DNA of 64,000 nt from Symbiodinium natans (taxonomy: Eukaryota; Sar; Dinophyceae; Suessiales; Symbiodiniaceae): contig CAJNDS010000042.1 of assembly GCA_905221605.1 (NCBI GenBank), forward strand, positions 1-64,000, in the 5' to 3' direction. Under the pieces are notes generated by a model that was given only the letters and a program-made list of their open reading frames with translations, made no database searches and was not told the DNA's origin. The translations under genes and the position numbers were made by a program. This document shows, piece after piece, positions 6,526 through 61,740 of the stretch (positions are counted from its first letter, which is position 1; every line of letters begins with the position of its first letter).

Positions 6526-6590
6526 TGTTAGGGTTTAGGGTTTAGGGTTCAGGGTTTATAGGGTTTACGGTTTAGGGTTACAATACCACA
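6526..6590 (+). repeat. Interstitial telomere-like tract (TTTAGGG)
   Basis: GTTTAGGGTTTAGGGTT followed by degenerate copies. Confidence 0.8.
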
Positions 6591-7374: not shown

Positions 7375-8167
7375 GCCTGAACTCTCGAGCCCTCAAGCCC
7401 AAACCTGCAAAACCGAATGCCCGAGCACAATTCATGGAACCCCAACCCCTTCCCCCCCCCCCCCCACACACATTAAAAACCCTCCAGTCTCCCTGCAACA
7501 TCCTAGACCCTAAACTCCCTAAACTCCCCAAACCCTGATCTCCCTACACCCTCAACTTTACACTCGCTAAGCTCCCCACACACTCCCTCAACCCTGAAGG
7601 GCGCTCCCACAGAGACCGCTTCGAGAGCTCGCCGGCACGGCCATGTGCCGCCCCGGCGATGGCCTCAGTGGCCCCCAAGCTCTCAGGGCTTTTCGGGCTT
7701 TTAGAGTGGCAGAAGGGTTGCCAGAAAAGCCAGCTGCAACAGCGTGAAGGGCTTAAGACTCTAGTGGCAGCAGGATTTCTCTTCCGACCTCCGACGCCCG
7801 TCACGCCAGGAGAGTGAGCAGAGCGTCCGAAGCGTGTCCGAAGCTGGGATTTCTGGGAGCACGCCCAGGCACGGAGTCAGCTCTGGGCCACCCCACGGCT
7901 TCTATATCCTCTATACACAACACCTGGGGGCCGAGAGACTCTCGCGCTCGCATGTCACCTCTGAGGGACATTGCGTCAAAATGCATCGCAAAGCGACAAA
8001 ACTGAGAGGCTGTATCAGGATCGAACCCTTGCTGTACGAGATGGGGAGACCTGAACCAAAAGACGACAAAACTTCCGATGTCATAACGACTATTGCCACG
8101 ACAAACTGCGAGCCCGGAACCAGGATCCAAGGAAGCCGAGAGCTCTGACCCGTGGGCTGCTCAGAAC

Positions 8168-11100
8168 TCAATATGGGCCATGTCGGCAAACAATTCCGCC
8201 CCTGCATTCCCTGCGCCCATAGTGATACCACCAGCCACCTCGGCAGTACGAGCCATAGCGGCACACCAACAGGTTTGCAACCGCAGTCGTGCTGTTGGTG
8301 TCGTCCTGCATCATGGTCGTGAAGTTCGAAGCGCTGCCTGAGGTATCAACCTCAGAACCGACATCCCTGTCGGCCTTGTAGCCGGACTTGCACACCAGCG
8401 CTCCACTGCACTTGCGAACACCATTGATCCATAGCCAAGTGCCGCGGCACACGACCCCGAAGCGGCAGGAGATCAAGTTGCTGAAGCCATGGGACTGGTT
8501 CAAAGCATCATACGTGGGCTCGACAGGACTCAATGCCACCAGTGCAGTGTCTTGGCTGTCACTCGCACCAAGATTGAGCGTCGGCTCGCTTGCCTCAGAG
8601 CCTGCGTAGTATGGGCCATGTCGGCAAACGATTCCGCCCCTGCATTCCCTGCGCCCATAGTGATACCACCAGCCACCTCGGCAGTACGAGCCATAGCGGC
8701 ACACCAACAGGTTTGCAACCGCAGTCGTGCTGTTGGTGTCGTCCTGCATCATGGTCGTGAAGTTCGAAGCGCTGCCTGAGGGATCAACCTCAGAACCGAC
8801 ATCCGTGTCGGCCTTGTAGCCGGACTTGCACACCAGCGCTCCACTGCACTTGCGGACACCATTGATCCATAGCCAAGTGCCGCGGCACACGACCCCGAAG
8901 CGGCAGGAGATCAAGTTGCTGAAGCCATGGGACTGGTTCACAGCATCATACGTGGGCTCGACAGGACTCAATGCCACCAGTGCAGTGTCTTGGCTGTCAC
9001 TCGCACCAAGATTGAGCGTCGGCTCACTTGCCTCAGAGCCTGCGTAGTATGGGCCATGTCGGCAAACAATTCCGCCCCTGCATTCCCTGCGCCCATAGTG
9101 ATACCACCAGCCACCTCGGCAGTACGAGCCATAGCGGCACACCAGCAGGTTTGCAACCGCAGTCGTGCTGTTGGTGTCGTCCTGCATCATGGTCGTGAAG
9201 TTCGAAGCGCTGCCTGAGGGATCAACCTCAGAACCGACATCCGTGTCGGCCTTGTAGCCGGACTTGCACACCAGCGCTCCACTGCACTTGCGGACACCAT
9301 TGATCCATAGCCAAGTGCCGCGGCACACAACCCCGAAGCGGCAGGAGATCAAGTTGCTGAAGCCATGGGACTGGTTCAAAGCATCATACGTGGGCTCTAC
9401 AGGACTCAATGCCACCAGTGCAGTGTCTTGGCTGTCACTCGCACCAAGATTGAGCGTCGGCTCACTTGCCTCAGAGCCTGCGTAGTATGGGCCATGTCGG
9501 CAAACGATTCCGCCCCTGCATTCCCTGCGCCCATAGTGATACCACCAGCCACCTCGGCAGTACGAGCCATAGCGGCACACCAGCAGGTTTGCAACCGCAG
9601 TCGTGCTGTTAGTGTCGTCCTGCATCATGGTCGTGAAGTTCGAAGCGCTGCCTGAGGTATCAACCTCAGAACCGACATCCGTGTCGGCCTTGTAGCCGGA
9701 CTTGCACACCAGCGCTCCGCTGCACTTGCGAACACCATTGATCCATAGCCAAGTGCCGCGGCACACAACCCCGAAGCGGCAGGAGATCAAGTTGCTGAAG
9801 CCATGGGACTGGTTCAAAGCATCATACGTGGGCTCTACAGGACTCAATGCCACCAGTGCAGTGTCTTGGCTGTCACTCGCACCAAGATTGAGCGTCGGCT
9901 CACTTGCCTCAGAGCCTGCGTAGTATGGGCCATGTCGGCAAACGATTCCGCCCCTGCATTCCCTGCGCCCATAGTGATACCACCAGCCACCTCGGCAGTA
10001 CGAGCCATAGCGGCACACCAGCAGGTTTGCAACCGCAGTCGTGCTGTCGTCCTGCATCATGGTCGTGAAGTTCGAAGCGCTGCCTGAGGTATCAACCTCA
10101 GAACCGACATCCGTGTCGGCCTTGTAGCCGGACTTGCACACCAGCGCTCCGCTGCACTTGCGGACACCATTGATCCATAGCCAAGTGCCGCGGCACACAA
10201 CCCCGAAGCGGCAGGAGATCAAGTTGCTGAAGCCATGGGACTGGTTCAAAGCATCATACGTGGGCTCGACAGGACTCAATGCCACCAGTGCAGTGTCTTG
10301 GCTGTCACTCGCACCAAGATGGAGCGTCGGCTCAGTGGCCTCAGAGCCTGCGTAGTATGGGCCATGTCGGCAAACGATTCCGCCCCTGCATTCCCTGCGC
10401 CCATAGTGATACCACCAGCCACCTCGGCAGTACGAGCCATAGCGGCACACCAGCAGGTTTGCAACCGCAGTCGTGCTGTTGGTGTCGTCCTGCATCATGG
10501 TCGTGAAGTTCGAAGCGCTGCCTGAGGTATCAACCTCAGAACCGACATCCGTGTCGGCCTTGTAGCCGGACTTGCACACCAGCGCTCCGCTGCACTTGCG
10601 GACACCATTGATCCATAGCCAAGTGCCGCGGCACACAACCCCGAAGCGGCAGGAGATCAAGTTGCTGAAGCCATGGGACTGGTTCAAAGCATCATATGTG
10701 GGCTCTACAGGACTCAATGCCACCAGTGCAGTGTCTTGGCTGTCACTCGCACCAAGATGGAGCGTCGGCTCACTTGCCTCAGAGCCTGCGTAGTATGGGC
10801 CATGTCGGCAAACGATTCCGCCCCTGCATTCCCTGCGCCCATAGTGATACCACCAGCCACCTCGGCAGTACGAGCCATAGCGGCACACCAGCAGGTTTGC
10901 AACCGCAGTCGTGCTGTTAGTGTCGTCCTGCATCATGGTCGTGAAGTTCGAAGCGCTGCCTGAGGTATCAACCTCAGAACCGACATCCGTGTCGGCCTTG
11001 TAGCCGGACTTGCACACCAGCGCTCCGCTGCACTTGCGGACACCATTGATCCATAGCCAAGTGCCGCGGCACACAACCCCGAAGCGGCAGGAGATCAAGT

Positions 11101-11343
11101 TGCTGAAGCCATGGGACTGGTTCAAAGCATCATATGTGGGCTCGACAGGACTCAATGCCACAAGTGCAGTGTCTTGGCTGTCACTCGTGCCAAGATGGAG
11201 TGTCGGCTCACTTGCCTCAGAGCCTGCGTAGTATGGGCCATGTCGGCAAACAATTCCGCCCCTGCATTCCCTGCGCCCATAGTGATACCACCAGCCACCT
11301 CGGCAGTACGAGCCATAGCGGCACACCAGCAGGTTTGCAACCG
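8168..11343 (-). repeat. 438-bp tandem repeat array inside repeat gene copy 1
   Basis: Seven full units and one partial unit of 438 nt (one unit 432 nt) that are almost identical at DNA level, including synonymous positions. This points to recent unequal crossing-over or gene conversion rather than old, purified repeats. Confidence 0.92.
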
Positions 11344-11656
11344 CAGTCGTGTTGGCGGTGTCCTGCATATCTGCGCTGGCAGTGCTGCTGCTCTGCAAGC
11401 TCGCATCCTCACCTGTCGTCTGGCACACAAGCGTGCCATCACACTTGGGCACGCCCTCCAGCCAAACCTCAGTGCCGTGGCAGAGCACGCCATAGCGGCA
11501 AGAGATCACGTTCCGGACGGCCCAAGACTGGTTCGTCGGGTCGAAGACTGAGTCACCCTCCACATCAACCGCAGCCGGCACGGTCCCGCGCAGGCTCTGT
11601 GCTTGGGCTGCGGGGAGCTGCCAAAGGGCCAGGAGAACGAAGAGGACTGACGACAT
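8168..11656 (-). CDS. Secreted cysteine-rich tandem-repeat protein, copy 1 (1162 aa, single exon)
   Basis: An uninterrupted frame of 1162 codons. Residues 1 to about 19 form a signal peptide (MSSVLFVLLALWQLPAAQAQ), so the product should enter the secretory pathway. A single N-terminal module is followed by seven full repeats of about 146 residues (438 nt; one is 432 nt) and a truncated eighth that ends in CRHGPY and a TGA stop. Each full repeat carries two modules with the same spacing, C-x5-C-x12-C-x5-C: an A module (GGWWYHYGRRECRGGIVC) and a B module (RGTWLWINGVRKCSGALVC). Counting the first and last, there are 16 modules. Linkers are acidic and Ser/Thr-rich and contain the N-glycosylation sequons NQS, NFT and NST in most repeats. 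The start ATG lies two bases after a pyrimidine-rich AG acceptor. I recognise no known family; an extracellular or cell-wall glycoprotein is an inference. It is unusual in lacking introns when its neighbours are split into tiny exons. Confidence 0.92.
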   Translation of the reverse strand: MSSVLFVLLALWQLPAAQAQSLRGTVPAAVDVEGDSVFDPTNQSWAVRNVISCRYGVLCHGTEVWLEGVPKCDGTLVCQTTGEDASLQSSSTASADMQDTANTTAVANLLVCRYGSYCRGGWWYHYGRRECRGGIVCRHGPYYAGSEASEPTLHLGTSDSQDTALVALSPVEPTYDALNQSHGFSNLISCRFGVVCRGTWLWINGVRKCSGALVCKSGYKADTDVGSEVDTSGSASNFTTMMQDDTNSTTAVANLLVCRYGSYCRGGWWYHYGRRECRGGIVCRHGPYYAGSEASEPTLHLGASDSQDTALVALSPVEPTYDALNQSHGFSNLISCRFGVVCRGTWLWINGVRKCSGALVCKSGYKADTDVGSEVDTSGSASNFTTMMQDDTNSTTAVANLLVCRYGSYCRGGWWYHYGRRECRGGIVCRHGPYYAGSEATEPTLHLGASDSQDTALVALSPVEPTYDALNQSHGFSNLISCRFGVVCRGTWLWINGVRKCSGALVCKSGYKADTDVGSEVDTSGSASNFTTMMQDDSTTAVANLLVCRYGSYCRGGWWYHYGRRECRGGIVCRHGPYYAGSEASEPTLNLGASDSQDTALVALSPVEPTYDALNQSHGFSNLISCRFGVVCRGTWLWINGVRKCSGALVCKSGYKADTDVGSEVDTSGSASNFTTMMQDDTNSTTAVANLLVCRYGSYCRGGWWYHYGRRECRGGIVCRHGPYYAGSEASEPTLNLGASDSQDTALVALSPVEPTYDALNQSHGFSNLISCRFGVVCRGTWLWINGVRKCSGALVCKSGYKADTDVGSEVDPSGSASNFTTMMQDDTNSTTAVANLLVCRYGSYCRGGWWYHYGRRECRGGIVCRHGPYYAGSEASEPTLNLGASDSQDTALVALSPVEPTYDAVNQSHGFSNLISCRFGVVCRGTWLWINGVRKCSGALVCKSGYKADTDVGSEVDPSGSASNFTTMMQDDTNSTTAVANLLVCRYGSYCRGGWWYHYGRRECRGGIVCRHGPYYAGSEASEPTLNLGASDSQDTALVALSPVEPTYDALNQSHGFSNLISCRFGVVCRGTWLWINGVRKCSGALVCKSGYKADRDVGSEVDTSGSASNFTTMMQDDTNSTTAVANLLVCRYGSYCRGGWWYHYGRRECRGGIVCRHGPY

Positions 11657-11672
11657 CCCTGGGAAAAGGATG
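11657..11672 (-). promoter_or_regulatory. Splice acceptor just upstream of repeat gene copy 1 (spliced-leader or 5' intron acceptor)
   Basis: On the minus strand the sequence CATCCTTTTCCCAG ends two bases before the ATG. A pyrimidine tract plus AG so close to the start is what is expected of a trans-splicing acceptor for the dinoflagellate spliced leader; a cis acceptor of a 5'-UTR intron would look the same. Confidence 0.6.
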
Positions 11673-11816
11673 CGCTCGTCTAGAGTCTACACGGGACAGT
11701 CGCTGAGTCACTAGTTTTGCCAAAAGCTGGTGGGGCCACGCGGAGCACGGCTGGGCAAGCATCTGCCTGGACATGATTGGACGAGCAAACGACATCAAAT
11801 GACTCAATGCACTTCA

Positions 11817-22396: not shown

Positions 22397-22755
22397 GGAG
22401 GGGGGTCTAACCACAAAAGTTGAAGAAACCAAGGTTCAAGCATCGAAAAACAAGAGAGGGGTCTAACCACAAAAGTTGAAGAAACCAAGGGGGTCTAACC
22501 ACGGGAAAACAAGAGAGGTGTCTAACCACAAAAGTTGAAGAATCAAGGAGGTCTAACCACAAAAGTCTGAGAAACCAAGGTTCAAGCAACGGGAAAACAA
22601 GAGAGGGGTCTAACCACAAAAGTTGAAGAAACCAAGGGGATCTAACCACAAAAGTCCAAGAAGCCAAGGTTCAAGCAACGGGCAAACAAGAAAGGGGTCT
22701 AACCACAAAAGTTGAAGAAACCAAGGGGGTCTAACCACAAAAGTCCAAGAAACCG
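22397..22755. repeat. Tandem array of GGTCTAACCACAAAAGTTGA units
   Basis: A unit of roughly 33 bp alternates with a longer variant that adds GGTTCAAGCAACGGGAAAAC. Around nine copies of TCTAACCAC are seen. A (CT)n tract follows at 22757-22795. Open frames across the array (WFLQLLWLDP repeats) are artefacts. Confidence 0.9.
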
Positions 22756-31399: not shown

Positions 31400-31487
31400 C
31401 TACTATAAACCCTAGACCCTAAATCCTAAACCCTAAATCCTAAACCCTAAGTCCTAAACTCTAGACTCTAAGCCCTAAACTCCATGG
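31400..31487 (-). repeat. Interstitial telomere-like tract (CCCTAAA, degenerate)
   Basis: Runs of CCCTAAATCCTAAACCCTAA with single-base variants over about 85 bp. Confidence 0.85.
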
Positions 31488-31966: not shown

Positions 31967-32499
31967 ACTTGACGATGTCTAGGGTTCTGAATCGCCGGCT
32001 GGTCAGAGTTGCATGCCATAAGTCGCTGCAACGTTCTGCTTATGTTGGGCAGAAGGGTTGCCAGAAAAGCCAGCTGCAACAGCGTGAAGGGCTTACGACT
32101 CTAGTGGCAGCAGGATTTCTCTTCCGACCTCCGACGCCCGTCACGCCAGGAGAGTGAGCAGAGCGTCCGACGAAGCTGGGATTTCTGGGAGCACGCCCAG
32201 GCACGGAGTCAGCTCTGGGCCACCCCACGGCTTCTATATCCTCTATACACAACACCTGGGGGCCGAGAGACTCTCGCGCTCGCATGTCACCTCTGAGGGA
32301 CATCGCGTCAAAATGCATCGCAAAGCGACAAAACTGAGAGGCTGTATCAGGATCGAACCCTTACTGTACGAGATGGGAAGACCTGAACCAAAAGACGACA
32401 AAACTTCCGATGTCATAACGACCATTTCCACGACAAACCGCGAGCCGGGGAGCAGGATCCAAGGAATCCAAGGGCTCTGACCCCTGGGCTCCGCAGAAC

Positions 32500-34803
32500 T
32501 CAATATGGGCCTTGCCGGCAAACGATTCCGCCCCTGCATTCCCTGTGCCCATAGTGATACCACCAGCCACCTCGGCAGTACGAGCCATAGCGGCACACCA
32601 GCAGGTCTGCAACCGCAGTCGTGCTGTTGGTGTCGTCCTGCATCATGGTCGTGAAGTTCGAAGCGCTGCCTGAGGTATCAACCTCAGAACCGACATCCGT
32701 GTCGGCCTTGTAGCCGGACTTGCACACCAGCGCTCCGCTGCACTTGCGGACACCATTGATCCATAGCCAAGTGCCGCGGCACACAACCCCGAAGCGGCAG
32801 GAGATCAAGCTGCTGAAGCCATGGGACTGGTTCAAAGCATCATATGTGGGCTCTACAGGACTCAATGCCACCAGTGCAGTGTCTTGGCTGTCACTCGCAC
32901 CAAGATGGAGCGTCGGCTCAGTGGCCTCAGAGCCTGCGTAGTATGGGCCATGTCGGCAAACGATTCCGCCCCTGCATTCCCGGCGCCCATAGTGATACCA
33001 CCAGCCACCTCGGCAGTACGAGCCATAGCGGCACACCAACAGGTTTGCAACCGCAGTCGTGCTGTCGGTGTCGTCCTGCATCAGGGTCGTGAAGTTCGAA
33101 GCGCTGCCTGAGGTATCAACCTCAGAACCGACATCCGTGTCGGCCTTGTAGCCGGACTTGCACACCAGCGCTCCGCTGCACTTGCGGACACCATTGATCC
33201 ACAGCCAAGTGCCGCGGCACACAACCCCGAAGCGGCAGGAGATCAAGCTGCTGAAGCCATGGGACTGGTTCAAAGCATCATACGTGGGCTCCACAGGACT
33301 CAATGCCACCAGTGCAGTGTCTTGGCTGTCACTCGCACCAAGATGGAGCGTCGGCTCAGTGGCCTCAGAGCCTGCGTAGTATGGGCCATGTCGGCAAACG
33401 ATTCCGCCCCTGCATTCCCTGCGCCCATAGTGATACCACCAGCCACCTCGGCAGTACGAGCCATAGCGGCACACCAACAGGTTTGCAACCGCAGTCGTGC
33501 TGTTGGTGTCGTCCTGCATCAGGGTCGTGAAGTTCGAAGCGCTGCCTGAGGCATCAGAACCGACATCCGCGTCGGCCTTGTAGCCGGACTTGCACACCAG
33601 CGCTCCGCTGCACTTGCGGACACCATTGATCCATAGCCAAGTGCCGCGGCACACAACCCCGAAGCGGCAGGAGATCAAGTTGCTGAAACCATGGGACTGG
33701 TTCAAAGCATCATACGTGGGCTCGACAGGACTCAATGCAACCAGTGCAGTGTCTTGGCTGTCACTCGCACCAAGATGGAGCGTCGGCTCAGTGGCCTCAG
33801 AGCCTGCGTAGTATGGGCCATGTCGGCAAACGATTCCGCCCCTGCATTCCCTGCGCCCATAGTGATACCACCAGCCACCTCGGCAGTACGAGCCGTAGCG
33901 GCACACCAGCAGGTTTGCAACCGCAGTCGTGCTGTTGGTGTCGTCCTGCATCATGGTCGTGAAGTTCGAAGCGCTGCCTGAGGTATCAACCTCAGAACCG
34001 ACATCCGTGTCGGCCTTGTAGCCGGACTTGCACACCAGCGCTCCGCTGCACTTGCGGACACCATTGATCCACAGCCAAGTGCCGCGGCACACAACCCCGA
34101 AGCGGCAGGAGATCAAGCTGCTGAAGCCTTGGGACTGGTTCAAAGCATCATACGTGGGCTCTACAGGACTCAATGCCACCAGCGCAGTGTCTTGGCTGTC
34201 ACTCGCACCAAGATGGAGCGTCGGCTCAGTGGCCTCAGAGCCTGCGTAGTATGGGCCATGTCGGCAAACGATTCCGCCCCTGCATTCCCTGCGCCCATAG
34301 TGATACCACCAGCCACCTCGGCAGTACGAGCCATAGCGGCACACCAGCAGGTTTGCAACCGCAGTCGTGCTGTTGGTGTCGTCCTGCATCATGGTCGTGA
34401 AGTTCGAAGCGCTGCCTGAGGTATCAACCTCAGAACCGACATCCGCGTCGGCCTTGTAGCCGGACTTGCACACCAGCGCTCCGCTGCACTTGCGGACACC
34501 ATTGATCCATAGCCAAGCGCCGCGGCACACAACCCCGAAGCGGCAGGAGATCAAGTTGCTGAAGCCATGGGACTGGTTCAAAGCATCATACGCGGGCTCG
34601 ACAGGACTCAATGCCACCAGTGCAGTGTCTTGGCTGTCACTCGCACCAAGATGGAGCGTCGGCTTAGTGGCCTCAGAGCCTGCGTAGTATGGGCCATGTC
34701 GGCAAACAATTCCGCCCCTGCATTCCCTGCGCCCATAGTGATACCACCAGCCACCTCGGCAGTACGAGCCGTAGCGGCACACCAGCAGGTTTGCAACCGC
34801 AGT
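32500..34803 (-). repeat. 438-bp tandem repeat array inside repeat gene copy 2
   Basis: Five full units and one partial unit of 438 nt (one 432 nt). Units within this gene share variants such as ACTGAGCC-type codons (Thr in SEATEP) that are rarer in copy 1, consistent with separate homogenisation of each array. Confidence 0.9.
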
Positions 34804-35112
34804 CGTGTTGGCGGTGTCCTGCATATCTGCGCTGGCAGTGCTGGTGCTTTGCAAGCTCGCATCCCCACCTGTCGTCTGACACACAAGCGTGCCATCACAC
34901 TTCGGCACACCCTCCACCCAAACCTCAGTGCCGTGGCAAAGCACGCCATAGCGGCAAGAGATCACGTTCCGGACGGCCCAAGACTGGTTCGTCGGGTCGA
35001 AGACTGAGTCCTCCTCCACACTAACCGCAGCCGACACGGTCCCGCGCAGGCTCTGTCCTTGGGCTGCGGGGAGCTGCCAAAGGGCCACGAGAACGAAGAG
35101 GACTGACGACAT
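32500..35112 (-). CDS. Secreted cysteine-rich tandem-repeat protein, copy 2 (870 aa, single exon)
   Basis: Paralogue of the gene at 8168-11656, in the same orientation. It has the same signal peptide apart from small changes (MSSVLFVLVALWQLPAAQGQ), the same N-terminal module, then five full 146-residue repeats and a truncated sixth ending CRQGPY before TGA, giving 12 C-x5-C-x12-C-x5-C modules. Repeats carry the same A and B modules and the NQS/NFT/NST sequons, with a few copy-specific changes (ASGSASN with a two-codon loss in one unit, TDS for TNS in another, GHRE for GRRE in the last). The ATG again lies two bases downstream of a pyrimidine-rich CAG. Flanking DNA is also shared with copy 1, so this is a genomic duplication followed by gain or loss of two repeat units. 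Function unknown. Confidence 0.91.
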   Translation of the reverse strand: MSSVLFVLVALWQLPAAQGQSLRGTVSAAVSVEEDSVFDPTNQSWAVRNVISCRYGVLCHGTEVWVEGVPKCDGTLVCQTTGGDASLQSTSTASADMQDTANTTAVANLLVCRYGSYCRGGWWYHYGRRECRGGIVCRHGPYYAGSEATKPTLHLGASDSQDTALVALSPVEPAYDALNQSHGFSNLISCRFGVVCRGAWLWINGVRKCSGALVCKSGYKADADVGSEVDTSGSASNFTTMMQDDTNSTTAVANLLVCRYGSYCRGGWWYHYGRRECRGGIVCRHGPYYAGSEATEPTLHLGASDSQDTALVALSPVEPTYDALNQSQGFSSLISCRFGVVCRGTWLWINGVRKCSGALVCKSGYKADTDVGSEVDTSGSASNFTTMMQDDTNSTTAVANLLVCRYGSYCRGGWWYHYGRRECRGGIVCRHGPYYAGSEATEPTLHLGASDSQDTALVALSPVEPTYDALNQSHGFSNLISCRFGVVCRGTWLWINGVRKCSGALVCKSGYKADADVGSDASGSASNFTTLMQDDTNSTTAVANLLVCRYGSYCRGGWWYHYGRRECRGGIVCRHGPYYAGSEATEPTLHLGASDSQDTALVALSPVEPTYDALNQSHGFSSLISCRFGVVCRGTWLWINGVRKCSGALVCKSGYKADTDVGSEVDTSGSASNFTTLMQDDTDSTTAVANLLVCRYGSYCRGGWWYHYGRRECRGGIVCRHGPYYAGSEATEPTLHLGASDSQDTALVALSPVEPTYDALNQSHGFSSLISCRFGVVCRGTWLWINGVRKCSGALVCKSGYKADTDVGSEVDTSGSASNFTTMMQDDTNSTTAVADLLVCRYGSYCRGGWWYHYGHRECRGGIVCRQGPY

Positions 35113-35127
35113 CCCTGCAAAAAAGGA
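35113..35127 (-). promoter_or_regulatory. Splice acceptor just upstream of repeat gene copy 2
   Basis: Minus-strand CCTTTTTTGCAG ends two bases before the ATG, at the same position as in copy 1. The bases differ (TTTTTTGCAG against TTTTCCCAG) but the pyrimidine tract and AG are kept, which suggests the site is functional. Confidence 0.6.
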
Positions 35128-35271
35128 TGCGCTCGTCTAGAGTCTACACGGGACAGTCGCAGAGTCACTATAGTTTTGCCAAAAGCTGGTGGGGCCACGC
35201 GGAGCACGGCTGGGCAAACATCTGGACATGATTGGACGAGCAAACGACATCAAATGACTCAATGCACTTCA

Positions 35272-45499: not shown

Positions 45500-47900
45500 C
45501 AAACTGAGCCTGTTCATACACATTCCTTCCCGCATCGATGCTGAGCGTATACAAAGAATCCGCTCCAGAACAGCAAAAGCTACGCAAGAGGCTAGGGGTT
45601 ACGCGTTCGGAGATGCCTGGGGTGTGGGAGCTGCTTCGAAGTTTCTTGAAGCTGCTGGCCTGAGCCTGGCTCGCTCGCTGGCCCGGACACGTGGGTAATT
45701 GCGCCTGAGCAGACACGAACATTAAAATGTTCCTATCCCCCCATCTCCATCTACCTATGGCTGCAAGATATAGATAGATTCGTGCATCTGCTACATACAT
45801 ATGTGGCATCTGTTGCAAATGTTACATGTGTTATGCTATATATGGAAAATATGCGGAGATATACGCATGCTTACCCACTCTCCCACGACAAAGCGCCTGC
45901 CGCCATTGCTGTCATGGGGCGGGTGGGGTGCCAACATACCAGAACTCCAAAAGTTTAAGGCACAGTATTCCAAGATTCACACAACAAGGAGGCTCAGATG
46001 TCCAAACCTTCACAAATCCACACAGGAGCTCGCCGTCTTCACCATTTGCATACGCCACCATACACCGACAAATGGAGGGGTCCCTTACCCGCGTGCTACC
46101 GATGCACCAACCAGTAAATACCATTAGTCGTGTCTTCGAGAAGAAACAGCCCTTCTACATGTGGGGGAACGAAACAAAAACAACGAGCACATGTGTACTC
46201 CCCCCCCCCCCCTAAAAGAAACACCCTCAATATGATTTCAGCGAACCCCACCTGGGGGGGGGGGGTGGGGGGTGCGTGGTTTTTGGAGGGGTAAATATTT
46301 ATAGATGCATACGTATATATAGTATGTACAGATATGTAGTATCTAACATCTACACATATAAGGACGTTGCTGTGACAGCGTAGCGCACCTGGCGCTCGGA
46401 GCTGGAGGAGGGCTTGCAACAGCGGCCATGGGCTCCGGGCTGCAGCTGCGGTACTGGGTATGAACCCTAAACGCCCTAAACCCCAAACCCTGAACACACT
46501 CACAATCCGAATGTAACATCGACTCTCTAACGGCTAGTAGGAGCCTGCATCCTGAACTTGCACAGCGTGCTATGGGACTCATATTCAGTAGCTGGGAAAG
46601 CCGGAGTTGAGCCAAGGCATCCCGCGCGAGAAAACATCGGGACACAAGAGGCATCTAGCCATCAGCAATGCCCCTTCAGCTGCCCCGCGTTGCGGCGACA
46701 TGATCCGGAGATTGCACGCATGCAGATGAAGATGGCCATACCTTGCCCTGCCAGTAGTGCTCTCGACCCACCCATTAATAAATAATTATTATTATTACAC
46801 TTATAATTACAATTATGATGATTATTTCATTTATTATTAGTATTGTTATTATTCGTATTCTTATTGTTACTAGTATTATTAATCATAAATGAAGGCCCGG
46901 AGTGGCCGCAGCTCCTCCGTGATGCTAAGCCACACCGCTTTGAGCGTTCGGGGCTGAGGTTCGAGGGCCAAGAAGAGGTTTAGGGTTTAGGGTTTAGGGT
47001 TCAGGGTTTAGGGTTTAGGGAGTCTTAAACTGTTTTTCGTCGGGGCCCTTTGCACTTCAGGCCGGAACAGGAAAATCACCAGAAGGCAGACTGAAGAATC
47101 ACCAATCGTAACTAGCGATTTATTGGAGAAGGGCAACCTTCGGCCAGGTATGTATAGGGATGATCTCGCACCCTTGGGTCTGCCAGCGTGTGTCTTGAAA
47201 CTCTAACCCCCACACCGTCGGACTTGCTTTGCAAGCCAAGCACCCGGTCAGAGTTTACTGCCTGTTCCAGCCGGACATCAAAACGAATTCTCGGATTCAC
47301 ACATCGCAAATGGACACATCGTTGCCAGAGGCGTCACTTTTGTGAGAGCCTGACTTGGCTTTGGTCAGGCTTGTCGTGTCACAGGTTACTACTTACTACT
47401 TCAGGGAGCTCCGGGCCCCCGCAGGCTATGTTCCTGTGCCGGAAACAGCTGCTGCAAGCAGGACTACAGGAATGTTGCAAGAGGTTTTGCCGGGGCACAG
47501 GTGCTCTCCCGTCCCTGTACACACCGCAATGGTCCCTCTTTCTGCATGTCTCTGCTACTTTTCTGCTACCCTTCTTCCGTGTAGGGATTCTCCGCCAGCT
47601 CCTCAGAACGTTCTCGGATGCAGGCGAAGTTGGCATCCTGCATCAATCTTCTGGATTCGGATTCCGCTTCCGCGGTTGCAGCCAGTAGTGTAGGACTTGG
47701 ACTAAGTTTCGGCTACACATGGCTACACCAAGTCTGTAGTTGCTACTCTGCGCCTGCACATCTTGCCCGTTCAGACCACCCAGCATGCAAATAACAGCAG
47801 AAGTGTTCGTAGAGTCATCAAATTCAAACAAAGCTCAAACCCGACAATCGTCGGTTCTGACTGCACCAGGAGCCATCGGAAGACATGCCGAAGTACACTG
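45500..47900. other. Region without a recognised gene; several simple repeats
   Basis: Contains poly-C at 46201-46212, poly-G at 46254-46266, ATT-rich DNA at 46785-46885 and a TTTAGGG tract at 46978-47022. Short frames on both strands are not supported. Confidence 0.4.
46978..47022 (+). repeat. Interstitial telomere-like tract (TTTAGGG)
   Basis: Six TTTAGGG units, one with TTCAGGG. Confidence 0.9.
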
Positions 47901-61469: not shown

Positions 61470-61740
61470 TTAGGAAACCCTAAACCCTAATTAAGCCCTA
61501 AACCCTAAACCCTAAACCCCAAACCCTAAACCCTAAAGGCTGCGCGAAGCTTGGAAGCTGGCCCACAAGGAATCCTCCTTCGACCGCCGGCGCATGAAAA
61601 GGCTGGCACCAGAGACCTTCTTCCTTGGAGAGCAGCGAAGCAAAAGTACACGCTTCGTGCACTTAGCCTAAACACCTCCAAACCCCAAACCCCAAACCCC
61701 AAACGCCAAACCCCAAACCCCAAACCCTAAACCCTAAACG
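61470..61740 (-). repeat. Two interstitial telomere-like tracts (CCCTAAA and CCCCAAA)
   Basis: 61471-61535 has CCCTAAACCCTAAACCCTAA; 61675-61740 has a CCCCAAA variant series ending in CCCTAAA. Confidence 0.9.

What the first reader, a model, noticed from the sequence alone, without database searches (positions are those of the whole stretch)
8168..11656. Undescribed secreted protein family built from a C-x5-C-x12-C-x5-C module
Seen: a signal peptide, then 16 copies (12 in the twin gene) of a 26-residue four-cysteine module in two alternating flavours. One is rich in Trp/Tyr/His (GGWWYHYG), the other has WLWINGV. I cannot place the module in any family I know. Inferred: a disulfide-stabilised, glycosylated extracellular or wall protein, with repeat number as a tunable property. 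This is the best candidate in the window for a new system.
Basis: partly seen in the sequence, partly recalled or inferred. Interest (0 to 1): 0.8.

Follow-up and report, generated by a model that had tools for sequence, protein, structure and literature searches.

The report
Dinoflagellate secreted four-cysteine repeat glycoprotein
A pair of neighbouring genes, very probably from the free-living dinoflagellate Symbiodinium natans, encodes large, probably secreted proteins made of 16 and 12 copies of a small, hardly changing four-cysteine domain that matches no described family we could search; it is most likely a multivalent part of the cell's outer coat, but its job is unproven.

Summary
An intronless 1162-aa frame (8168-11656, minus) has a signal-peptide-like start and 16 C-x5-C-x12-C-x5-C modules; a twin 24 kb away has 12. 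The genome is Symbiodinium natans by contig-length match. Relatives exist in other records: five long arrays, short Symbiodinium paralogs and one MMETSP transcript ORF. Cores are 94-100% identical between genes, linkers 51-79%.

(1) The domain is about 40 residues, not 26: an Asp at -14 and an N-glycosylation sequon at -11 from Cys1 usually belong to it. (2) There are three flavours: an N-terminal B0, then alternating A and B. (3) Repeat number does not look freely tunable: arrays hold 16, 12, 8 or 4 modules, although repeats are homogenised inside genes.

No Pfam, NCBIfam, PDB-sequence or PDB-fold match held up. UniRef calls two S. natans relatives "Sushi domain-containing protein"; Pfam does not support that. 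In the window genes cationic A/B cores (+3 or +4) alternate with acidic linkers (-3 to -5) without dibasic sites.

Best explanation: a multivalent cell-surface or extracellular-matrix glycoprotein. Rivals: carbohydrate-binding array, peptide polyprotein, extrusome content. Secretion, glycosylation, disulfide pairing and function are inferred, not shown.

The parts
8168..11656 (-). Gene 1: intronless frame of 1162 aa, 16 modules, order B0-(A-B)7-A; stop codon 8168-8170
11597..11656 (-). Gene 1 signal-peptide-like segment (residues 1-20), followed by the conserved SLRG start of the presumed mature chain
   Evidence: hydropathy; motif; no signal-peptide predictor available
11423..11500 (-). Gene 1 core of the N-terminal module B0 (residues 53-78), charge -1
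8172..11362 (-). Gene 1 tandem array, 438-bp unit (146 aa = A + linker + B + linker), 7.3 copies, 98% matches
11222..11347 (-). First A module with 8-residue flanks: first row of the single-module fold (mean pLDDT 70)
10988..11113 (-). First B module with 8-residue flanks
32503..35112 (-). Gene 2 (twin): 870 aa, 12 modules, B0-(A-B)5-A; identical to P0004; stop codon just below
35053..35112 (-). Gene 2 signal-peptide-like segment (residues 1-20)
   Evidence: P0004
7708..11816 (-). Gene 1 copy of the duplicated block: frame plus about 460 bp of 3' flank and about 160 bp of 5' flank, about 97% identical to gene 2
32048..35271 (-). Gene 2 copy of the duplicated block; no similarity was seen just outside it
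11657..11670 (-). Pyrimidine-rich stretch plus AG and GG just before the ATG: possible splice or spliced-leader acceptor (inferred, not tested)
   Evidence: sequence; similar in gene 2

Best explanation
The genes encode secreted, repeat-built glycoproteins of the dinoflagellate cell surface or extracellular matrix (amphiesma, pellicle or mucilage). Each ~40-residue domain starts with D-x2-N-x-S/T, which carries an N-glycan, and continues into a two-disulfide antiparallel beta-sheet whose central hairpin exposes an aromatic, cationic strand (A: GGWWYHYGRR; B: TWLWINGVRK). Acidic, glycosylated spacers set the domains apart and balance their charge. The intact chain therefore acts as a multivalent strap: many identical sticky domains bind wall polysaccharide or acidic partner chains and so cross-link the coat. 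Shown: composition, order, core conservation, sequon position, charge alternation, homogenisation inside genes. Inferred: secretion, glycosylation, disulfide pairing, binding partner, location.
For: Signal-like start and no later transmembrane-like stretch in the window proteins. Every Cys of genes 1 and 2 lies in a module. Unit cores 94-100% identical between gene consensuses, the other columns 51-79%, in 15 of 15 pairs of 6 genes. Asp exactly at -14 in 97 of 104 and sequon exactly at -11 in 90 of 104 modules of 12 proteins; 14 and 14 of 16 in gene 1. A/B cores +4 in 15 of 15 of gene 1 and 10 of 11 of the twin, the last +3; linkers -3 to -5 in both. All linkers are net negative (-1 to -6) in the 7 long-array records P0001-P0007 although their letters diverge (P0001 is gene 1 in another record). 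Single-module model: four short strands, residues 11-30 at mean pLDDT 81-83. Short relatives end in Gly-rich tails (P0008; C157 paralogs, runs of 14-18 Gly).
Against: No proteomic, localisation or binding data. The B0-A-B fragment model is poor (mean pLDDT 38) and no fold match supports a binding role. B0 is not cationic in the window genes (-1). Some distant members break the pattern: P0014 linkers are -1, +2 and 0; P0009 has neither Asp nor sequon in 2 of 2 modules, P0013 has the sequon in 2 of 4 and P0014 in 1 of 4; C157 B0 lost the sequon. P0003 and P0007 each have one Cys outside the exact modules.
Confidence: 0.45

Rival explanations
1. Carbohydrate-binding array: each module is a small two-disulfide aromatic carbohydrate binder, working like fungal CBM1 or hevein-type domains, and the array gives avidity for cellulose or glycans of own wall, prey or bacteria. 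A special case of the best explanation in which sugar binding is the primary activity.
For: Size, disulfide number, clustered aromatics and glycosylated linkers resemble such domains (resemblance recalled, not tested). W, Y, F and H make up 18.6-20.3% of core residues in 10 of the 13 proteins counted (11.4-23.1% over all) against 3.7-10.9% in linkers. Dinoflagellate thecal plates are cellulosic (passages of PMC9959387).
Against: No Pfam carbohydrate-binding match for window proteins or relatives; no fold match.
Confidence: 0.2
2. Polyprotein precursor: the chain is cut in the linkers and releases many copies of two cationic, Trp/Arg-rich, disulfide hairpin peptides (A and B) with antimicrobial or signalling activity; acidic linkers mask the charge before release.
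For: Near-invariant cationic cores between variable acidic linkers is the pattern of multi-copy peptide precursors (pattern recalled). Charges; conservation.
Against: No dibasic site in any linker of P0001-P0007 (P0008, P0011 and P0013 have 1, 1 and 2), while 'RR' and 'RK' lie inside the cores; the domain includes the upstream Asp and sequon, so the linker is not free spacer; B0 is less cationic than A and B in the long arrays (-1 to +3).
Confidence: 0.13
3. Extrusome content: a disulfide-packed matrix protein of trichocysts or mucocysts that is discharged, comparable in role to minicollagens of cnidarian nematocysts.
For: Signal-like start, Cys-dense, repetitive, paired paralogs. Minicollagen Cys-rich domains polymerise by disulfide reshuffling (start of the abstract of PMC4863159 seen in a listing).
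Against: Cysteines are even and confined to modules in genes 1 and 2; no sequence relation shown; no listed title or abstract made the link.
Confidence: 0.12
4. Sushi (CCP) repeat protein, as UniRef labels two S. natans relatives.
For: Name given by UniRef to P0011 and P0014; four cysteines per domain.
Against: Pfam scans of P0011, P0014, gene 1 and 20 single domains list no Sushi match at E up to 10 (HMMER's filters drop most matches above 0.1); the 26-residue core is less than half of a Sushi domain (size recalled).
Confidence: 0.03
5. Assembly artefact or untranslated satellite that happens to be open.
For: Highly homogeneous tandem repeat; record P0001 has the same gene with units 2-4 arranged differently, so repeat order may depend on the assembler.
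Against: Synonymous-biased changes in cores; same frame, order and cores in other records; public gene model P0011 and transcript record P0012.
Confidence: 0.02

Closest known systems
P0011 and P0014, unnamed proteins of Symbiodinium natans (UniRef: 'Sushi domain-containing protein')
   Same: Same domain (P0011: 8 modules, B0-A-B-A-B-A-B-A; P0014: 4 modules by a loose pattern); same genome (C169, C1447)
   Different: P0011 A cores have drifted; P0014 matches fall in separate frames of 164 and 60 aa, one of its cores is deviant and its C-terminal half has no module
P0012 (MMETSP transcript ORF, 339 aa) and P0013 (308 aa)
   Same: Signal-like start, SLRG, four domains each; Asp at -14 in 4 of 4 modules of both, sequon at -11 in 4 of 4 and 2 of 4
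   Different: Only four modules; 37% and 38% identical to the twin's N-terminal part; organism not named in the listing
Fungal CBM1 and hevein-type small disulfide carbohydrate-binding domains (recalled)
   Same: Works-like only: about 40 residues, few disulfides, clustered aromatics, glycosylated linkers
   Different: No Pfam match; Cys spacing different (recalled); no binding shown
Minicollagens of cnidarian nematocysts (start of abstract of PMC4863159 seen in listing)
   Same: Secreted, Cys-rich modules that stabilise a secretory structure
   Different: No sequence relation shown; here cysteines sit in 26-residue cores
Galaxins of corals (title and start of abstract of PMC2726143 seen in listing)
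   Same: Secreted repeat proteins with regularly spaced cysteines (partly recalled)
   Different: Organism and, as recalled, di-cysteine motif differ; not compared by alignment

Membership tests
Dinoflagellate D-x2-N-x-S/T ... four-Cys domain family (defined here) | Core C-x2-G-x2-C-x-G ... C-x-G-x3-C | tested here: met
   41 of 43 distinct cores of 13 proteins fit; the two that do not are one each of P0011 and P0014. In 19 cores chosen for diversity all seven positions are invariant
Dinoflagellate D-x2-N-x-S/T ... four-Cys domain family (defined here) | Asp at -14 and sequon at -11 from Cys1 | tested here: met
   Gene 1: 14 and 14 of 16; 12 other proteins: Asp 97 of 104, sequon 90 of 104. P0009 fails in 2 of 2. 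Shuffled upstream letters give 7.9 of 70 on average (maximum 16) for the range -9 to -13 against 59 of 70
Sushi/CCP (PF00084) | Match to the Pfam profile | tested here: not met
   No match listed at E up to 10
Sushi/CCP (PF00084) | C1-C3, C2-C4 disulfides in a ~60-residue beta module (recalled) | not testable with these tools
   No coordinates for disulfide geometry; core is 26 residues
CBM1 / hevein-type carbohydrate binders | Match to a Pfam profile or fold | tested here: not met
   the model is of middling confidence, so the fold part is weak
CBM1 / hevein-type carbohydrate binders | Binds polysaccharide | not testable with these tools
   needs a binding assay
Multi-copy peptide precursor | Dibasic cleavage motifs between copies | tested here: not met
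   0 dibasic sites in linkers of P0001-P0007; other proteases not excluded
Multi-copy peptide precursor | Near-identical cationic copies between acidic spacers | tested here: met
Antistasin, Sgf11_N, PYRIN and other Pfam names listed for the whole chain | A stretch that passes on its own | tested here: not met
   0 stretches for all ten listed families, five of them above their whole-protein cut-off: weak scores summed over repeats

The most novel reading that the evidence does not exclude
The arrays are length-standardised: the cell keeps a long (16-domain) and a short (12-domain) version in spite of constant homogenisation, by adding or losing blocks of four domains (4, 8, 12, 16), so that a near-neutral block-polyampholyte of fixed span acts as a ruler or strut of the cell coat. 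It would be a new kind of repeat-counting extracellular scaffold, built from a domain not seen outside dinoflagellate-type records.
Probability: 0.1. Interest if true: 0.7.

Novelty: new variant of a known kind. Interest (0 to 1): 0.47.

Why it matters
Most conserved lineage-specific genes of Symbiodinium lack any similar protein in UniProt (PMC8045281, passages read). This is a well-defined one: a sharp domain signature, nearly frozen cores, a pair of intact genes, short intron-bearing paralogs and at least one relative recorded as a transcript. If it is a coat protein, it gives a handle on what the dinoflagellate surface is made of beyond cellulose, which would bear on cyst formation and on host recognition in symbiotic relatives. 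The core-versus-linker contrast is also a clean case of concerted evolution under strong selection on one segment of a repeat.

Tried and rejected
Pfam hits on the whole chain (Sgf11_N, PYRIN, Antistasin and others, five above cut-off) were rejected: 0 stretches pass alone, and of 20 single domains 1 matches PYRIN at best E 0.2 and none the others. The best single-domain Pfam hit, DUF7631 (2 of 20 domains, best E 0.033), is far below its cut-off on full proteins and was not taken as kinship.

A spliced-leader relic in the 5' flank (sign of retroposition) was sought: no exact match of four patterns in the window; the best local match is 7 bases in both genes, reached by 166 and 197 of 500 shuffles, so rejected.

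Viral contigs and GTDB prokaryote genomes: 16 and 35 pattern matches, none confirmed by tblastn. Rfam (gathering cut-off) and tRNA scans of the window: nothing. Of the 9 other stop-to-stop frames of 200 aa or more I scanned 7: no Pfam family at E up to 0.1.

The 217-aa fold (mean pLDDT 38) is used only to note strands. The 42-aa fold has no PDB neighbour worth naming: one Foldseek hit at E 8.1, and VIA-align could compare only that one chain.

Literature: of ten searches the two with module letters found no paper; in the others no listed title or abstract described such a family, but five of them held more papers than were listed, and the library lacks most subscription journals and all preprints. 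Passages of PMC8045281 and PMC9959387 were read, no paper whole.

Limits: protein searches scored only the ~8000 candidates sharing most words. Rows left out: P0001 from the six-gene comparison and, because it is gene 1 in another record; gene 1 itself was not in the 104 modules and was counted apart; P0010 and P0015 (degenerate). The 19 and 20 rows of A4 and A6 were chosen by hand; of the 27 domains printed, 7 were left out of A6, among them both of P0009, the last of P0008 and two of P0014, which lack the upstream signature in whole or part, so its 'invariant Asp' is not a count over the family. The unit tree missed two unit borders (one unit of P0003 of double length, last unit of P0004 absent).
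Full report
WHAT IS THERE. The frame at 8168-11656 on the minus strand is real: 1162 codons from ATG to TGA. It consists of a signal-like start, 16 modules C-x5-C-x12-C-x5-C and no cysteine elsewhere. Shuffling the same residues gives 0.0135 such matches on average, at most 1 in 2000 shuffles. The order is B0-(A-B)7-A. B0 is a third flavour that occurs once, at the N-terminus. The twin, 32503-35112, is B0-(A-B)5-A, 870 aa. The DNA repeat is 438 bp, one A-B pair. The two genes lie in a duplicated block (7708-11816 and 32048-35271, about 97% identical) that ends about 160 bp before the ATG and about 460 bp after the stop; the sequence just outside is not alike.

WHERE IT COMES FROM. The genome that holds the window has 759.4 Mb in 2543 contigs; the window starts contig C42. 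Two other family loci lie on contigs of 1,080,303 and 798,452 bases, exactly the contig lengths listed for two proteins that NCBI assigns to Symbiodinium natans (P0011, P0014). I therefore take the organism as S. natans, a free-living species (PMC8045281, passages read). P0001 seems to be gene 1 in another record with a longer contig (366,939 against 247,058 bases for C42): nine segments in both, six identical at the same place, one moved from second to fourth place, two different. Whether that is an allele or an assembler effect I cannot tell.

RELATIVES. Three protein searches, between them covering lengths of about 80 to 2030 aa, returned 15 proteins: P0001-P0007, P0008-P0010 and five new ones, P0011-P0015; searches scored only the candidates sharing most words. 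Of those with a name, P0008 is S. pilosum, P0011 and P0014 are S. natans and P0012 is an MMETSP transcript record, labelled as a complete ORF as far as the truncated name shows; the species of the others is unknown to me. Viral contigs and GTDB prokaryote genomes gave no confirmed relative. In the window's own genome the one answered search found the two window genes, a third long gene (C169, 603-aa open frame), four short tandem paralogs on C157 and a locus on C1447. P0002, P0003 and P0005-P0007 were not seen there, so they probably come from other genomes. The C157 copies carry introns: B0 of the first copy is split, and only a GC-AG join gave a full module in the range scanned. They end in runs of 14-18 glycines and CW. 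Later genome searches with more distant queries did not complete, so the family count is a lower bound.

Aligned on the first cysteine, 90 of 104 modules of 12 proteins have an N-glycosylation sequon exactly 11 residues upstream and 97 of 104 an Asp exactly 14 upstream; in gene 1, counted apart, 14 and 14 of 16. For the range -9 to -13, 59 of 70 distinct sequences have a sequon against 7.9 on average, 16 at most, when the 17 upstream letters are shuffled (the sequences are related, so this is not a probability). Of 43 distinct cores 41 fit C-x2-G-x2-C-x-G ... C-x-G-x3-C, and 36 fit the full 26-residue form with the mid Gly. The conserved unit is thus D-x2-N-x-[ST]-x4-N-[LIVF]-[IL]-x-C-x2-G-x2-C-x-G-x6-G-x3-C-x-G-x3-C, about 40 residues. 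Exceptions: P0009 has neither Asp nor sequon, P0013 keeps the sequon in 2 of 4 modules, P0014 in 1 of 4, and the C157 B0 has lost it. SLRG (or SLRR) follows the signal-like start in 9 of the 10 records with such a start; P0014 lacks it.

SELECTION AND CONCERTED EVOLUTION. Between the unit consensuses of six genes the core columns are 94-100% identical and the remaining columns 51-79% in all 15 pairs. Inside the window, 12 units show 1 nonsynonymous and 7 synonymous distinct changes in cores against 15 and 12 in linkers (Fisher P = 0.047; units are not independent). In a tree of 42 units from eight records, the units of seven form one group each (support 0.77-1.00); those of P0001 alone do not, but P0001 and its twin P0004 together do (0.87). 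So repeats are homogenised inside genes while the cores hardly change between genes. In the paralog P0011 the A cores have drifted by three or more residues from the common A, the B cores by one or two.

NUMBERS. Modules per protein: 16 in gene 1 (and P0001, the same gene), P0002, P0003; 12 in gene 2, P0005, P0006; P0007 has 11 and begins with what looks like the last Cys of a B0, so probably 12; 8 in P0011; 4 in P0012, P0013, P0014 by a looser pattern; P0008 (marked partial) has 3, P0009 2, and the first C157 copy 3 with the split B0. The B0-(A-B)n-A order alone makes even numbers; multiples of four need n odd, which holds for the long arrays (n = 7, 5, 7, 7, 5, 5, 5 and 3, P0007 inferred). 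P0003 and P0005 group together and again are a 16/12 pair. The sample is small and related, and repeat collapse in assembly is possible, so I hold the fixed-length reading only as the novel case.

CHARGE. A and B cores carry +4 (one +3) in the window genes; linkers -3 to -5. Linkers are net negative, -1 to -6, throughout P0001-P0007 though their letters diverge, and negative in P0008, P0009 and P0011-P0013; whole chains of P0001-P0007 are near neutral (-13 to +7). Linkers of P0001-P0007 have no dibasic site; P0008, P0011 and P0013 have 1, 1 and 2; cores have many. P0014 does not follow the charge rule (-1, +2, 0).

STRUCTURE. A single A module with five other window modules as alignment gives mean pLDDT 70, residues 11-30 at 81-83, with four short strands; the 217-residue B0-A-B fragment is not reliable (mean pLDDT 38). 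Foldseek on the PDB gave one hit at E 8.1, which VIA-align did not support. Profiles of the core and of the 40-residue domain match no PDB sequence. Pairing of cysteines is unknown; the symmetric 5-12-5 spacing suggests nesting, as a guess.

WHAT IT MOST LIKELY DOES. I favour an intact extracellular glycoprotein of the cell coat in which many identical aromatic-cationic domains on acidic glycosylated spacers bind and cross-link wall polysaccharide or partner chains. In favour: signal-like start, glycosylation site as part of the domain, no dibasic processing motif in the linkers of P0001-P0007, cores almost frozen, Gly-rich tails in short paralogs. Missing: any localisation or binding datum. 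The carbohydrate-binding array is a sharper form of the same idea. The peptide-precursor rival explains frozen cationic copies between acidic spacers but not the conserved upstream Asp and sequon. Extrusome content cannot be excluded.

WHAT IS KNOWN. Pfam, NCBIfam and PDB gave no match that I accept. UniRef's name 'Sushi domain-containing protein' for P0011 and P0014 is not reproduced by Pfam. The literature searches named under Tried and rejected turned up nothing on the family in what they listed. Hence: a new domain family, Symbiodinium and a marine transcript record as far as named records go, of the known general kind 'secreted Cys-rich repeat protein'.

Noticed in passing
8168-11656 and 32503-35112, N-termini; P0001-P0005, P0008, P0011-P0013: SLRG (or SLRR) stands directly after the presumed signal peptide in 9 of 10 records with a signal-like N-terminus; it might be a sorting or processing motif of dinoflagellate secreted proteins.
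   Followed up: partly
L009 and L010 (G000 C157, about 158.5-167.1 kb): Four tandem short paralogs with introns, one inside the B0 module, and C-terminal runs of 14-18 glycines ending in CW; one intron seems to be GC-AG.
   Followed up: partly
L011 (G000 C169:226156-227799, -): Third long gene, 8 modules; its A cores have drifted more than its B cores. TTTAGGG repeats lie within 200 bases upstream of its ATG.
   Followed up: no
P0010 and P0015: Degenerate frames with broken modules in other records: possible pseudogenes of the family.
   Followed up: no
6528-6579, 31406-31480, 46977-47020, 61475-61537, 61678-61739: Short arrays of telomere-like heptamers (TTTAGGG and variants) scattered through the window.
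   Followed up: no
22398-22754: Tandem array of 89-bp units (with 59- and 32-bp periods) GGGGTCTAACCACAAAAGT..., function unknown.
   Followed up: no
P0001 against gene 1 (8168-11656): The same gene in another record has units 2-4 in a different arrangement at constant repeat number: allele, gene conversion or assembly effect.
   Followed up: partly
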